DNA of 36,603 nucleotides from Candidatus Poseidoniaceae archaeon (GTDB lineage Archaea; Thermoplasmatota; Poseidoniia; Poseidoniales; Poseidoniaceae): positions 1 to 36,603 of the forward strand of contig JAOMOG010000016.1 in NCBI GenBank assembly GCA_028353405.1. The letters run 5' to 3'. The translations under genes were made by a program, and so were the position numbers. This document shows, piece after piece, positions 32,365 through 35,911 of the stretch. Position 1 is the stretch's first letter. Each line of letters opens with the position of its first letter. The notes under the pieces were generated by a model. That model saw only the letters and a list, made by a program, of their open reading frames with translations, did no database searches and was not told where the DNA came from.

Positions 32365-33519
32365 CTATAATTGCAATGTTATTTGCCGTGAAATTGGCAT
32401 TTCTAAATTGCCAAGTCTAAATCCAATAAGACGAACTTTTTCTTTATGTTGAAGATTATTAGCAAAGAGTTGTTGGGCAAGGCGAGAAAATACCTCCGCA
32501 TCATCCATCGCTACAGGTATAGAGCGCCCATGAGTATGTGTTTCAAAGCCAGTATACCTTATTTTTACCTCAGCCAACCTTCCAGATACCCCCATCTCCT
32601 GAGCCCTCTCCAAAACAGTTGTAACCAATTGGTTAAGTCTTACCAAAACTATCTCTGAATCTGACTGGTCAACATCAAAAGTATGTTCCTTACCAACAGA
32701 TTTTCTACTCCTCAACGGACTCACTTCATTAGTGGTTTTCCCATCTGCAAGCCGAATTATCCAAGATGCAAATCTCTCGTTTGTCATTCTCGCTAGAGCC
32801 AATTCACCCACATCATATGCTTCATCAACACTGGTAATTCCCCATTCTGCCAGCATTGTTGCTGTTTTAGGGCCGACACCGGGTACTTCTCTAACCGGCC
32901 TATCAGCAAAAAATTCTTGAATTTCATCAGGCAATATTCTGAAGATTCCGTTGGGTTTGTTTATTTCACTTGACATCTTTGCCAATATCCTAGTTGGACC
33001 GATGCCAAATGAAGCTGTTAATCCAACTTTCTTGTATATTGATTGTTGTAACTTACGGCACAATGCAAAGGCTGAATCCCAATCGCCATCAACCGACTCT
33101 GTAATATCCAAATAGGCTTCATCAATACTGGCTTTCTCAAATTTTATTGCTGAAGGCTTGAGAACTTCCATGACCTTTCGACTTGCTCTACTATACAACC
33201 CTCTAGTTCCACTAATATAGATGGCATTTCCATATGGCGCCCCAGGACACCTCCTCCATGCTTCTCCAATAGGCATAGCAGAATGAATACCATATTTCCT
33301 CGCTGGATAATTGCAAGTTGAAACAATTCCTCTAGCACGACCTTGATTGGGATCAGAACCGATAATTAGAGGAACCATTGGATCTAAGTCGTGATGTAGT
33401 GTCTCAACCGCTGCAAAGAAAGCATCTAAGTCACAATGAACAATAATTCTCTCTGAACTCCTACTGTCATTATCTAGAGTTGTACCTCCATCAGGAGATT
33501 TGAGTCCAGCATCAGCCAT
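32365..33519 (-). CDS. dinB: Y-family translesion DNA polymerase (Pol IV/DinB)
   Basis: A 384-residue lesion-bypass DNA polymerase. The palm motif IIVHCDLDAFFAAVE contains the metal-binding DxD. Then come VPLIIGSDPNQGRARGIVSTCNYPARKYGIHSAMP (the nucleotide-contact Tyr/Arg segment) and the second catalytic motif KASIDEAYLDIT with its Asp-Glu. The thumb HhH region is RPVREVPGVGPKTATMLAEWGI. A little-finger domain (KSVGKEHTFDVD ... EVKIRYTGFETHTHG) completes the fold. Length is slightly above Dpo4 (352). The last residues do not form a clear PCNA-binding box. ATG 33519 is well placed. It converges on valS (9-nt gap) and is divergent from a PD-(D/E)XK-like gene across 135 nt, so a shared regulatory region is likely. 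Confidence 0.93.
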   Translation of the reverse strand: MADAGLKSPDGGTTLDNDSRSSERIIVHCDLDAFFAAVETLHHDLDPMVPLIIGSDPNQGRARGIVSTCNYPARKYGIHSAMPIGEAWRRCPGAPYGNAIYISGTRGLYSRASRKVMEVLKPSAIKFEKASIDEAYLDITESVDGDWDSAFALCRKLQQSIYKKVGLTASFGIGPTRILAKMSSEINKPNGIFRILPDEIQEFFADRPVREVPGVGPKTATMLAEWGITSVDEAYDVGELALARMTNERFASWIIRLADGKTTNEVSPLRSRKSVGKEHTFDVDQSDSEIVLVRLNQLVTTVLERAQEMGVSGRLAEVKIRYTGFETHTHGRSIPVAMDDAEVFSRLAQQLFANNLQHKEKVRLIGFRLGNLEMPISRQITLQL

Positions 33520-33654
33520 TGATATTACTTGACTGTCAGCGGTGTTTAACTATAACTCAAAATAAGGAAATATTTGGCTTAGTTAAAATAGTGTTAATCT
33601 TTACATAGATTGAATGAACTCCATGCGAGGCTTATTCACTAATAGGCGATAAAA
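33520..33654. other. Divergent promoter region between dinB and the nuclease-like gene
   Basis: 135 AT-rich bases between two divergent starts. It must hold promoters for both genes; AT-rich boxes are present on each strand but none is clear enough to name. No RNA gene is visible. Confidence 0.45.
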
Positions 33655-34917
33655 ATGGAAAAGGTATTTGATGAATGGATTAAATGGTTTAAAGCGACTT
33701 ACGAAACAGAACCTATTGTTCTGTACGGTAAAGGAATAAACGACTCAAAACAACAACAACTGATACGTATTTGGATATCTGCCAATGGAGAGGTACCCCC
33801 AGGTGGAAAGTTACTTACCCAAAGTCTTTTTTTAGATAAAAAGAAAACAAAAGCAGCGAATGGTTTAGTCATATTTAGAGCAAAAGGAAACCCACCCATC
33901 ATATTTTCAACCAATTCCTATATCGCAGAAGGAGATTTGAAATTTAATCAAAGTCCGAAAAAGAAGTCTGTGAATAAGAAAGCAAAAAAGACTAGCGGAA
34001 ATGAAAAAAGGAGGTCACTGCCACTAAAAAAGCCATTCCATTGGAGGTGTCGAGAGTGTGGTGAAGTAGGGGTGAGTGAAATACTTGAGAAGCACTGTGA
34101 TTTACAGCCAAAGCAGTTGGCCCCGTTATCAGCTGAAGGTAAAATATGGTTTGAAAAATTCCTGGATAGTGTCGAATGGAAGTATGTTTCAATAGATAAA
34201 TTAATGACTATTCCAAATATTTCAAATGAAAGTAAAGCACTATTAATTGCTGAAGAAGCTGGCCGTAGCCTTGAACAAATAATGCGTGGACTAAGTCTAG
34301 AATGCCCGTCTCATTATGAATTATATGATCGTAGAAATACTCATCTTAGGACTTCAGATCTAAAAACAAAAAAGGGCTTCAATGATGCATTAAAAGATTC
34401 TATAAAAAACCATGGAAAGATTCTATCTGCTATGAGAACTGCTCCAATTGATAAAATTGAACTCGGGCATATTTTTGATGAATTCTTAACAAATATATGT
34501 GAATTAGTAGTCAGCGATATTTGGAAGAAAGGAGAAAAAATACGTTACTATTCACCATCGTTGAGGGTAGCGGTAACTGGAACTCCAGACTTGAAATATT
34601 TGGATATTCCCGTGGAAATGAAAACTATTGAGAATCTACCGTATAGGCATATTGAAACGAATAAAAAGAATAATTTTAGATCAAAAGTAAAATCAAATTA
34701 CATGACGCAGGTTTCAATCTATAGTAAGGCGGTAGGACGCAGATGGCTTCTTGTCCTTTTAATCTCTAGACAAAGTGGAGAATTTACTATATTGCCGATG
34801 AGTAATGTCGAATATTTGCCGCGATTAGAAAAGAAATTGATAAACTGGAGTGAAGAGCCGGAATCAGCATCATTGCTGAAAAAATATCATAAACTGAAAG
34901 GATCCCCTGAATCCTAG
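33655..34917 (+). CDS. Zinc-finger protein with a PD-(D/E)XK (RecB/Cas4-like) nuclease domain
   Basis: A 420-residue protein with no family I can name. The N-terminal part (1-100) is mixed alpha/beta. A highly basic linker follows (about 102-125, KKKSVNKKAKKTSGNEKRR). A likely zinc site is C132-x2-C135 ... H147-C148. The C-terminal third has the marks of a PD-(D/E)XK nuclease: H272 in GHIFDEFL (motif I position), GTPD312LKYLD, then VE321MK323, and the RecB/Cas4-type motif Q352-VSI-Y356 in a helix. These are the spacings expected of RecB-like exonuclease cores. No iron-sulfur cysteine set typical of Cas4 or AddB is seen at the C-terminus. It is divergent from dinB, suggesting DNA repair rather than defence; no CRISPR or cas genes are nearby. 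Confidence 0.7.
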   Translation: MEKVFDEWIKWFKATYETEPIVLYGKGINDSKQQQLIRIWISANGEVPPGGKLLTQSLFLDKKKTKAANGLVIFRAKGNPPIIFSTNSYIAEGDLKFNQSPKKKSVNKKAKKTSGNEKRRSLPLKKPFHWRCRECGEVGVSEILEKHCDLQPKQLAPLSAEGKIWFEKFLDSVEWKYVSIDKLMTIPNISNESKALLIAEEAGRSLEQIMRGLSLECPSHYELYDRRNTHLRTSDLKTKKGFNDALKDSIKNHGKILSAMRTAPIDKIELGHIFDEFLTNICELVVSDIWKKGEKIRYYSPSLRVAVTGTPDLKYLDIPVEMKTIENLPYRHIETNKKNNFRSKVKSNYMTQVSIYSKAVGRRWLLVLLISRQSGEFTILPMSNVEYLPRLEKKLINWSEEPESASLLKKYHKLKGSPES

Positions 34918-34927
34918 AGAATTGTAA

Positions 34928-35911
34928 TCAAAGTAGATGTTTATTCACCGTTGTTTCACATTCCGCACCTGAAAGTACAGCCATTATTGCGTTGGCAATA
35001 TCCCTGCCGACTCTTGCCTGTGCTTCTAATGTGGCTGCGCCAATATGTGGTGTTCCGTGGAAATTATCATGCTGAATTAGAGCATAATCAGGTGCTACTG
35101 GTTCGGATTCAAATACATCCAAGGCCGCTGAAGAAATCACCCCTTGTTCTAATGCTTGTAGCAATGCTGTCTCGTCAATGATTCCGCCACGAGCACAATT
35201 CACAATATGATTTCCACATTTGATTCCATCTCTAGATTTCCCAGGCATCATAGCCATTCTATCCTCATTTACTAGATGATGGGTTTCTTCAGTCAAATTA
35301 CAATGTATTGAGATATGAGTACATTTTTTGAATAAATTATCTACAGACTTATGCAGAGTTGTATTTTGTGATTTAGCAATTTTAGCAGGAAGATATGGGT
35401 CAAATGCATGCACTTCCATTCCCATTGCTTGCGCTACTGCTCCGACTCCTTGGGCGATTCTACCAAAGCCAATTAATCCCAAGCATTTACCACTTAATTC
35501 AGTACCACCCATGATTTTTTTCTCCCACTTACCCTCTCTCATTCCCTTATTTGCCTTAGGCAAGTGACGAAGGCTAGCGAGTAAGTGTCCAATAGTCAAT
35601 TCAACAACTGATTGGGTTGATGCTCTAGGTGCATTGACAACAGGAATTCCTGCCTCTGCAGCTGCTTTGATATCTATATTGTCAACACCTACTCCAGCAC
35701 GCCCGATGACCTTCAAACGTTCACCGGTAGCAGATATTACTTCAGCAGGTATTTTGGTAGCACTGCGGACTATAATAGCATCGAAGTTAGATAGCTCACC
35801 GGCAAGTAAATCAGTAATACTAATTGATTTGTTGACCACTTCATGCCCTGCTTTTTCAAGCAATTCTATAGCCGCTGGAGCCATACCATCAGTGACTGCA
35901 ATTCTAGCCAT
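34928..35911 (-). CDS. serA: D-3-phosphoglycerate dehydrogenase, short form
   Basis: A 327-residue NAD-dependent 2-hydroxyacid dehydrogenase, first step of serine synthesis. The N-terminal substrate domain has DAIIVRSATKIPAEVI and GRAGVGVDNIDI.AA.EAGIPVVNAP, the typical SerA pattern. The NAD site is LGLIGFGRIAQGVGAVAQAMGMEV. The catalytic Arg lies in NCARGGIIDE, the Glu in DVFESEP and the His in TPHIGAAT. It lacks the ACT and ASB regulatory domains (longer SerA proteins have 400-530 residues), so serine feedback through ACT is not expected. ATG 35911 matches the family start. Downstream it converges on the nuclease-like gene, and 58 nt separate it from the upstream partial gene. Confidence 0.92.
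   Translation of the reverse strand: MARIAVTDGMAPAAIELLEKAGHEVVNKSISITDLLAGELSNFDAIIVRSATKIPAEVISATGERLKVIGRAGVGVDNIDIKAAAEAGIPVVNAPRASTQSVVELTIGHLLASLRHLPKANKGMREGKWEKKIMGGTELSGKCLGLIGFGRIAQGVGAVAQAMGMEVHAFDPYLPAKIAKSQNTTLHKSVDNLFKKCTHISIHCNLTEETHHLVNEDRMAMMPGKSRDGIKCGNHIVNCARGGIIDETALLQALEQGVISSAALDVFESEPVAPDYALIQHDNFHGTPHIGAATLEAQARVGRDIANAIMAVLSGAECETTVNKHLL

What the first reader, a model, noticed from the sequence alone, without database searches (positions are those of the whole stretch)
33655..34917. Zinc-finger plus PD-(D/E)XK protein facing dinB
All core marks of a RecB/Cas4-like nuclease are present (H272, D312, E321-M-K323, Q352-x3-Y356), preceded by a basic linker and a C2HC-like zinc site. 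The N-terminal domain is unknown. The shared divergent promoter with a translesion polymerase suggests a DNA damage role. This may be an undescribed archaeal repair nuclease.
Basis: partly seen in the sequence, partly recalled or inferred. Interest (0 to 1): 0.65.

Follow-up and report, generated by a model that had tools for sequence, protein, structure and literature searches.

The report
Accessory archaeal zinc-site RecB/Cas4-like nuclease
This gene of a marine archaeon very probably encodes a DNA-cutting enzyme of a well-known superfamily, with an extra zinc site and a small front domain of unknown kind; it is carried by only some relatives, and its position beside a DNA-repair polymerase gene is local rather than a conserved partnership.

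Summary
The ORF (33655-34917, +, 420 aa) is real, under purifying selection, and its six proposed catalytic residues (H272, D312, E321, K323, Q352, Y356) are invariant in all 13 relatives that cover them; the zinc ligands C132/C135/H147/C148 are invariant in all 14 that cover them. An AlphaFold model (pLDDT 82) puts these residues on the expected elements; the best solved-structure matches are RecE, Cas4, MGME1, lambda-type exonucleases and EXO5. So the nuclease reading holds. Sequence profiles place it in neither Cas4 nor PF12705, and the Fe-S cysteines of Cas4 are absent. The N-terminal domain models confidently (pLDDT 91) without a PDB match, and occurs only in this gene.

The repair link fails. 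Only 2 of 15 relatives lie beside dinB; 59 of 62 genomes of the genus have dinB but only 2 the nuclease; in four close relatives serA and dinB abut without it, keeping the same dinB upstream element. The gene is an accessory, Poseidoniales-restricted nuclease found at several sites, nearly fixed in two small genera. I favour an accessory DNA-end-processing nuclease, an analogue of solo-Cas4, with defence somewhat more likely than repair. Activity and role are untested.

The parts
33655..34917 (+). Accessory nuclease gene, 420 aa
   Evidence: relatives in 15 of 318 Poseidoniales genomes (one further hit discarded); dN/dS 0.12-0.23 between close relatives
33655..33942 (+). N-terminal domain, residues 1-96, alpha/beta, found only in this gene; absent from G313/L018
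   Evidence: model of residues 1-97: pLDDT 90.6, pTM 0.81; no PDB match; profile hits only this gene, 13 of 318 genomes
33943..34032 (+). Lysine-rich variable linker, residues 97-126
   Evidence: pLDDT below 50 at residues 100-117; length varies, mostly lost in L016
34048..34098 (+). Zinc-type site C132-x2-C135-x11-H147-C148
   Evidence: invariant in 14 of 14 rows covering it; weak zinc-ribbon matches, below cut-off, in 7 of 15 members
34339..34902 (+). PD-(D/E)XK nuclease core, residues 229-416
   Evidence: PHROG 1990/1706 Cas4-type families at E 1.3e-3 / 1.3e-4 for this protein
34468..34470 (+). H272, in the first core helix
   Evidence: 13 of 13; helix 267-285
34588..34590 (+). D312 (GTPD motif)
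   Evidence: 13 of 13; turn between strands 305-309 and 313-315
34615..34623 (+). E321-x-K323
   Evidence: 13 of 13; strand 318-325
34708..34722 (+). Q352-x3-Y356
   Evidence: 13 of 13; helix 335-359
33520..33654 (.). Divergent intergenic region: dinB-side part conserved with or without the nuclease; nuclease-side part shared only with G047
33534..33558 (-). 25-bp element upstream of dinB, kept in all six genomes of the clade, four of which lack the nuclease; single copy in G000
32365..33519 (-). dinB (translesion polymerase), core gene; neighbour, not part of the system
   Evidence: 59 of 62 genomes of the genus
34928..35911 (-). serA-like D-3-phosphoglycerate dehydrogenase; abuts dinB when the nuclease is absent. 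Name from sequence, no family search run

Best explanation
The gene encodes a metal-dependent PD-(D/E)XK nuclease with a RecB/Cas4/lambda-exonuclease-like core. By analogy, D312 and E321 (with H272) hold the divalent metals, K323 assists hydrolysis, and Q352-x3-Y356 positions the DNA strand (inferred). The H plus Q-x3-Y set is typical of exonucleases acting on DNA ends (recalled knowledge). The zinc site and N-terminal domain probably bind DNA or a partner and set specificity (inferred). It is an accessory, chromosomal gene with its own upstream region, gained and lost at several sites in Poseidoniales and nearly fixed in two small genera. Its role is most likely stand-alone DNA-end processing, as proposed for solo-Cas4, with degradation of foreign DNA somewhat more likely than repair of the cell's own.
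For: Six catalytic residues 13/13, four zinc ligands 14/14. Core element order with the motif residues on the expected elements. PDB top hits RecE 3h4r (E 7.7e-4), Cas4 SSO0001 4ic1 (9.2e-4), LHK-Exo, MGME1, AddAB; VIA-align Z up to 7.8 over residues about 229-416 with RecE, SSO0001, MGME1, EXO5, lambda exonuclease. Phage Cas4/exonuclease families, best E 3.2e-6 and 4.8e-6 in relative L018. Purifying selection. Patchy: 15 of 318 order genomes, but 8 of 9 and 3 of 3 in two genera. Clean absence at the same junction in four close relatives. A defence-type ATPase near one relative (L027, NsnB model E 2e-54) and an HNH gene overlapping another by 4 bp (L024).
Against: No biochemical data. Fold matches are modest (E about 1e-3, Z under 8, which the tool warns can be background); what carries weight is that they agree with one superfamily and with the motif. 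Profile comparison gives no support for Cas4 (probability 0.1%) or PF12705 (2.5%), and the best PHROG E-values belong to one of 15 members. Flanks are mostly housekeeping genes (pyrI, ttuA, ribD, folC-like, serA), not defence islands. Near-fixation in two genera and purifying selection fit a cellular role as well as defence. The HNH partner is not conserved: the relative L016, with the same downstream gene, lacks it.
Confidence: 0.5

Rival explanations
1. A DNA-damage repair nuclease working with DinB, co-regulated from the shared divergent promoter.
For: Divergent neighbours 135 bp apart in G000, and the same arrangement in G047. The nuclease class includes repair enzymes (AddAB, EXO5, Dna2, MGME1).
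Against: dinB neighbours 2 of 15 relatives; the nuclease is in 2 of the 62 genus genomes, 59 of which have dinB; the dinB upstream element persists without the nuclease and occurs once in the genome. G000 already has five PF12705 matches (not all places listed; the window protein itself has no PF12705 hit).
Confidence: 0.15
2. A dedicated anti-phage or anti-plasmid nuclease in which the N-terminal domain and zinc site recognise foreign or modified DNA or a phage component, like a one-gene restriction enzyme.
For: Patchy distribution and clean presence/absence; faster protein divergence than its neighbours between G000 and G047 (62% versus 88% dinB and 83% serA); a defence-type ATPase pair near L027 and an HNH gene next to L024.
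Against: No PADLOC match for this protein; best among 15 members E 0.012, not credible. No recurrent defence neighbour. Near-fixed in two genera.
Confidence: 0.3
3. A gene of a selfish or viral element stranded in the chromosome (homing-like nuclease or virus-derived exonuclease).
For: Several insertion sites; closest sequence families are phage Cas4-type exonucleases.
Against: No relative in two scans of viral contigs nor a credible one in phages and plasmids; RecB/lambda-type cores are end-processing rather than site-specific enzymes (recalled); no integrase or viral hallmark gene noticed beside it.
Confidence: 0.08
4. The core is a PD-(D/E)XK fold acting on RNA (DXO/Rai1-like).
For: Rai1/DXO chains appear in the VIA-align list at Z 6.0-7.0.
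Against: The top ranks go to DNA exonucleases, and the only credible sequence-family matches are labelled as Cas4-type DNA enzymes.
Confidence: 0.05

Closest known systems
Solo-Cas4 / Cas4 family nucleases
   Same: PD-(D/E)XK core; stand-alone archaeal gene; fold match to Cas4 SSO0001 4ic1
   Different: No Fe-S cysteine set; no Pfam PF01930 match; profile probability 0.1%; extra zinc site and N-terminal domain
RecB/AddB-type nucleases, Pfam PF12705
   Same: Same kind of core; AddAB and AdnAB among fold matches
   Different: No PF12705 match; profile probability 2.5% against 91% for PF12705 versus Cas4 as control; no helicase
RecE / lambda exonuclease / YqaJ phage exonucleases
   Same: Best fold match is RecE (Z 7.8, 3.9 A over 162 residues); YqaJ and RecE-type predicted viral proteins among matches
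   Different: No sequence-family match beyond one weak RecE-like PHROG hit (E 0.031); chromosomal; zinc site and N-terminal domain
PHROG 1990 (Cas4-domain exonuclease) and PHROG 1706
   Same: Only detectable sequence relatives; alignment spans the motif region
   Different: Phage families of about 290 positions; matches weak and in few members (1990: 5 of 15; 1706: 3 of 15 at E up to 1)

Membership tests
PD-(D/E)XK nuclease superfamily | D and E-x-K catalytic residues conserved in the family | tested here: met
   13 of 13 rows
PD-(D/E)XK nuclease superfamily | Core alpha-beta-beta-beta-alpha-beta arrangement with motif residues on the right elements | tested here: met
   DSSP of the model, fold matches; predicted, not solved; distances between residues could not be measured
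PD-(D/E)XK nuclease superfamily | Metal-dependent nuclease activity | not testable with these tools
   needs an assay
Cas4 family (PF01930/COG1468) | Four conserved cysteines for an Fe-S cluster (stated for all Cas4 in PMC5704561, passage read) | tested here: not met
   No cysteine conserved in the nuclease half; the conserved site is C2HC upstream of the core
Cas4 family (PF01930/COG1468) | Sequence membership | tested here: not met
   No Pfam hit; hhalign 0.1%
RecB-like PDDEXK_1 (PF12705) | Sequence membership | tested here: not met
   No Pfam hit; hhalign 2.5%, E 0.019; ten column-shuffled controls on a cruder target alignment reached 0.5% for PF12705 and 6.9% for Cas4
Lambda exonuclease / RecE / YqaJ | Fold and sequence membership | tested here: inconclusive
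   Best fold match RecE, Z 7.8, but no Pfam hit
dinB-linked repair module | Conserved neighbourhood with dinB | tested here: not met
   2 of 15 relatives; unequal flanks of 1.5-8 kb, some cut by contig ends
Zinc-binding protein | Conserved ligands | tested here: met
   14 of 14; metal itself not testable
Known anti-phage systems (PADLOC) | Match to a model | tested here: not met
   None for this protein; best among 15 members E 0.012

The most novel reading that the evidence does not exclude
A previously undescribed, Poseidoniales-specific one-gene genome-defence nuclease: a private N-terminal domain (possibly a new fold) plus a zinc site recognise foreign DNA or DNA ends, and a divergent RecB/Cas4-like core without Fe-S cluster degrades it.
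Probability: 0.2. Interest if true: 0.6.

Novelty: new variant of a known kind. Interest (0 to 1): 0.33.

Why it matters
Poseidoniales are abundant uncultured surface-ocean archaea whose DNA processing and defence are little characterised (recalled). A small accessory nuclease family with a domain of no recognised fold, and a zinc site where related enzymes have an Fe-S cluster, would extend the solo-Cas4/RecB-like group and offers a compact protein for expression and structure work. The finding also shows that neighbourhood to dinB in a single genome is a poor guide to function.

Tried and rejected
dinB partnership: tested by gene order, co-occurrence and the empty site; rejected. Shared regulatory element: the 25-bp element upstream of dinB is single-copy in G000 and independent of the nuclease. 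Conserved HNH partner (L024): HNH relatives are in 38 of 318 genomes, and only G280 is on both hit lists; the relative L016, with the same downstream gene, lacks it. N-terminal domain shared with other effectors: none, 13 of 318 genomes, all this gene. Virus or plasmid origin: two viral scans without relatives; phage tblastn with the window protein gave six Acinetobacter phage matches at E 0.04-0.9, not credible; L026 gave none in phages or plasmids. N-terminal fold search: best Foldseek E 1.1, no VIA row with Z 2 or more; this does not prove a new fold. PDB sequence searches gave nothing credible. Phylum-wide search: 6 of 389 genomes, five of them Poseidoniales with this gene; the sixth, G532, is a lysine-rich zinc-ribbon ORF, discarded. 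G144 is cysteinyl-tRNA synthetase by its sequence, discarded. Horizontal origin by composition: GC 35.7% versus 41-42% in dinB and serA, but GC3 nearly equal (0.29 versus 0.28-0.30); no conclusion. The dinB tree used 18 of 30 loci, because my script picked rows by an exact peptide and dropped 12; it leaves the order of gains and losses in the six-genome clade open. Literature: searches (listings seen) showed no description of this family; searches gave nothing of use; most subscription journals are not held.

Full report
Observation. The ORF is present as described: 33655-34917, plus strand, 420 aa, ATG start, 135 bp from the divergent dinB start. In the window's own genome (G000, 66% complete) it is single. 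Close relatives differ mainly at silent sites (dN/dS 0.12-0.23 in six close pairs), so the gene is kept by selection as a protein.

Where it occurs. A profile search found 16 of 318 genomes of the order; one hit (G144) is cysteinyl-tRNA synthetase and was discarded, leaving 15. Record titles of the independent genome-contig scan name Poseidoniales, Thalassarchaeaceae or Euryarchaeota (11 loci). A phylum sample of 389 genomes added none outside the order: 6 hits, five Poseidoniales, one discarded. Within the genus of the window only G000 and G047 have it, of 62 genomes, but 8 of 9 and 3 of 3 genomes have it in two other genera, g7 and g12. None of the 35 order genomes at 90% completeness or more has it, but no genome of g7 or g12 reaches that completeness, so this says little. 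No virus or plasmid relative was found.

The nuclease core. In an alignment of 15 relatives (A4), H272, D312, E321, K323, Q352 and Y356 are identical in all 13 rows that reach them. The AlphaFold model (12 sequences, mean pLDDT 82.4, pTM 0.65) has H272 in helix 267-285, D312 in the turn between strands 305-309 and 313-315, E321 and K323 in strand 318-325, and Q352/Y356 in helix 335-359, the order of a PD-(D/E)XK core. Foldseek's best PDB matches are RecE, Cas4 SSO0001, a phage exonuclease, LHK-Exo, AddAB and MGME1 (E 7.7e-4 to about 4e-3). VIA-align gives Z up to 7.8 (RecE, 3.9 A over 162 residues; SSO0001, 4.5 A over 167), with MGME1, EXO5 and lambda exonuclease close behind. Scores this low can be background; their agreement with one superfamily and with the independent motif is what persuades. 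The viral library agrees (42 matches at E 0.001 or better, many named PD-(D/E)XK or exonuclease). By sequence, only PHROG 1706 and 1990, labelled CRISPR/Cas-associated and Cas4-domain exonuclease, match credibly: E 1.3e-4 and 1.3e-3 for the window protein, 3.2e-6 and 4.8e-6 for L018. Pfam, NCBIfam and PADLOC give nothing credible.

What it is not. All Cas4 proteins carry four Fe-S cysteines (PMC5704561; abstract, section 8 and passages read). This family has no conserved cysteine in the nuclease half. Profile comparison gives 0.1% for Cas4 and 2.5% for PF12705, while PF12705 against Cas4 gives 91%; ten column shuffles on a cruder version reached 0.5% for PF12705 and 6.9% for Cas4, so neither value means anything. 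It is a divergent branch of the superfamily rather than a Cas4 or PF12705 member. G000 has five PF12705 matches and a Cas4-profile match on another contig, so such nucleases are not rare there.

The other parts. C132-x2-C135-x11-H147-C148 is invariant in 14 of 14 rows, with weak zinc-ribbon resemblance. The lysine-rich linker is disordered and variable. Residues 1-97 alone give a confident model (pLDDT 90.6, pTM 0.81) without a PDB match, and a profile of this domain finds only this gene (13 of 318 genomes). G313's copy (L018) starts at the zinc site and lacks it, so the domain is not needed in every lineage.

The dinB question. Of 30 dinB loci read (of 59 genomes with dinB), the nuclease is present in 2. 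In G001, whose dinB and serA are 96-97% identical to the window's, and in G133, G049 and G007, serA and dinB abut without it. All six genomes of this clade keep a 25-bp element just upstream of dinB, nuclease or not, found once in G000. The nuclease-side upstream sequence is shared only by G000 and G047. Both copies sit in the same place although their dinB genes are not each other's nearest in an incompletely resolved tree: one old insertion with losses, or exchange at the junction. Outside this genus the gene lies elsewhere: near pyrI and ttuA in g12; beside a 584-aa protein of unknown function, or before a membrane-protease-like gene, in g7; beside a folC-like gene in G313; beside a dihydrolipoamide-dehydrogenase-like gene in G132 (the last one and the protease are named from sequence alone). 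dinB was seen in none of the 13 other loci, with flanks from 1.5 to 8 kb, some cut short by contig ends.

Role. Two flanks hint at defence: an OLD/AAA_15 ATPase (NsnB model E 2e-54) with a companion gene near L027, and an HNH_5 gene overlapping L024's copy by 4 bp (its Pfam score of 25 lies just under the cut-off of 27.5). Neither recurs. Most other flanks are housekeeping. Near-fixation in two genera, selection typical of ordinary genes, and absence of a constant partner resemble what the Cas4 study reports for solo-Cas4, for which it proposes uncharacterised defence or repair functions. I therefore commit to an accessory DNA-end-processing nuclease, leaning to defence, at about even odds for the whole statement; the nuclease core itself I hold at about 0.9.

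Shown: ORF, selection, motif and ligand conservation, distribution, empty site, lack of dinB linkage. Predicted: fold and domain layout. Inferred: activity, metal, substrate and role.

Noticed in passing
L024:9242-10411; relatives L069-L082: An HNH_5-type protein whose N-terminal 200-240 residues recur in Poseidoniales (38 of 318 genomes with a match) in open frames of varied length, suggesting one HNH module joined to different C-terminal parts.
   Followed up: partly
L027:9398-12029 (-): A defence-type AAA_15/OLD ATPase (NsnB model E 2e-54) followed by a 382-aa protein without credible Pfam or PADLOC match, between the nuclease and a threonyl-tRNA-synthetase-like gene (named from sequence): a possible uncharacterised two-gene defence unit.
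   Followed up: partly
window 33534-33558: A 25-bp element upstream of dinB, kept with at most one change in six related genomes but not found in 24 other dinB loci of the genus; single copy in G000.
   Followed up: partly
L018:2382-2702 (-): A small ORF with a KHARERLEERV stretch lies directly upstream of the nuclease copy that lacks the N-terminal domain; no Pfam or PADLOC match.
   Followed up: partly
dinB-serA junction, L044-L046, L051, L054-L056, L059-L061, L065, L067: In 12 of 30 dinB loci read, serA is not within the held flank (1.5 kb or less, contig ends included), so other genes may sit at this junction.
   Followed up: no
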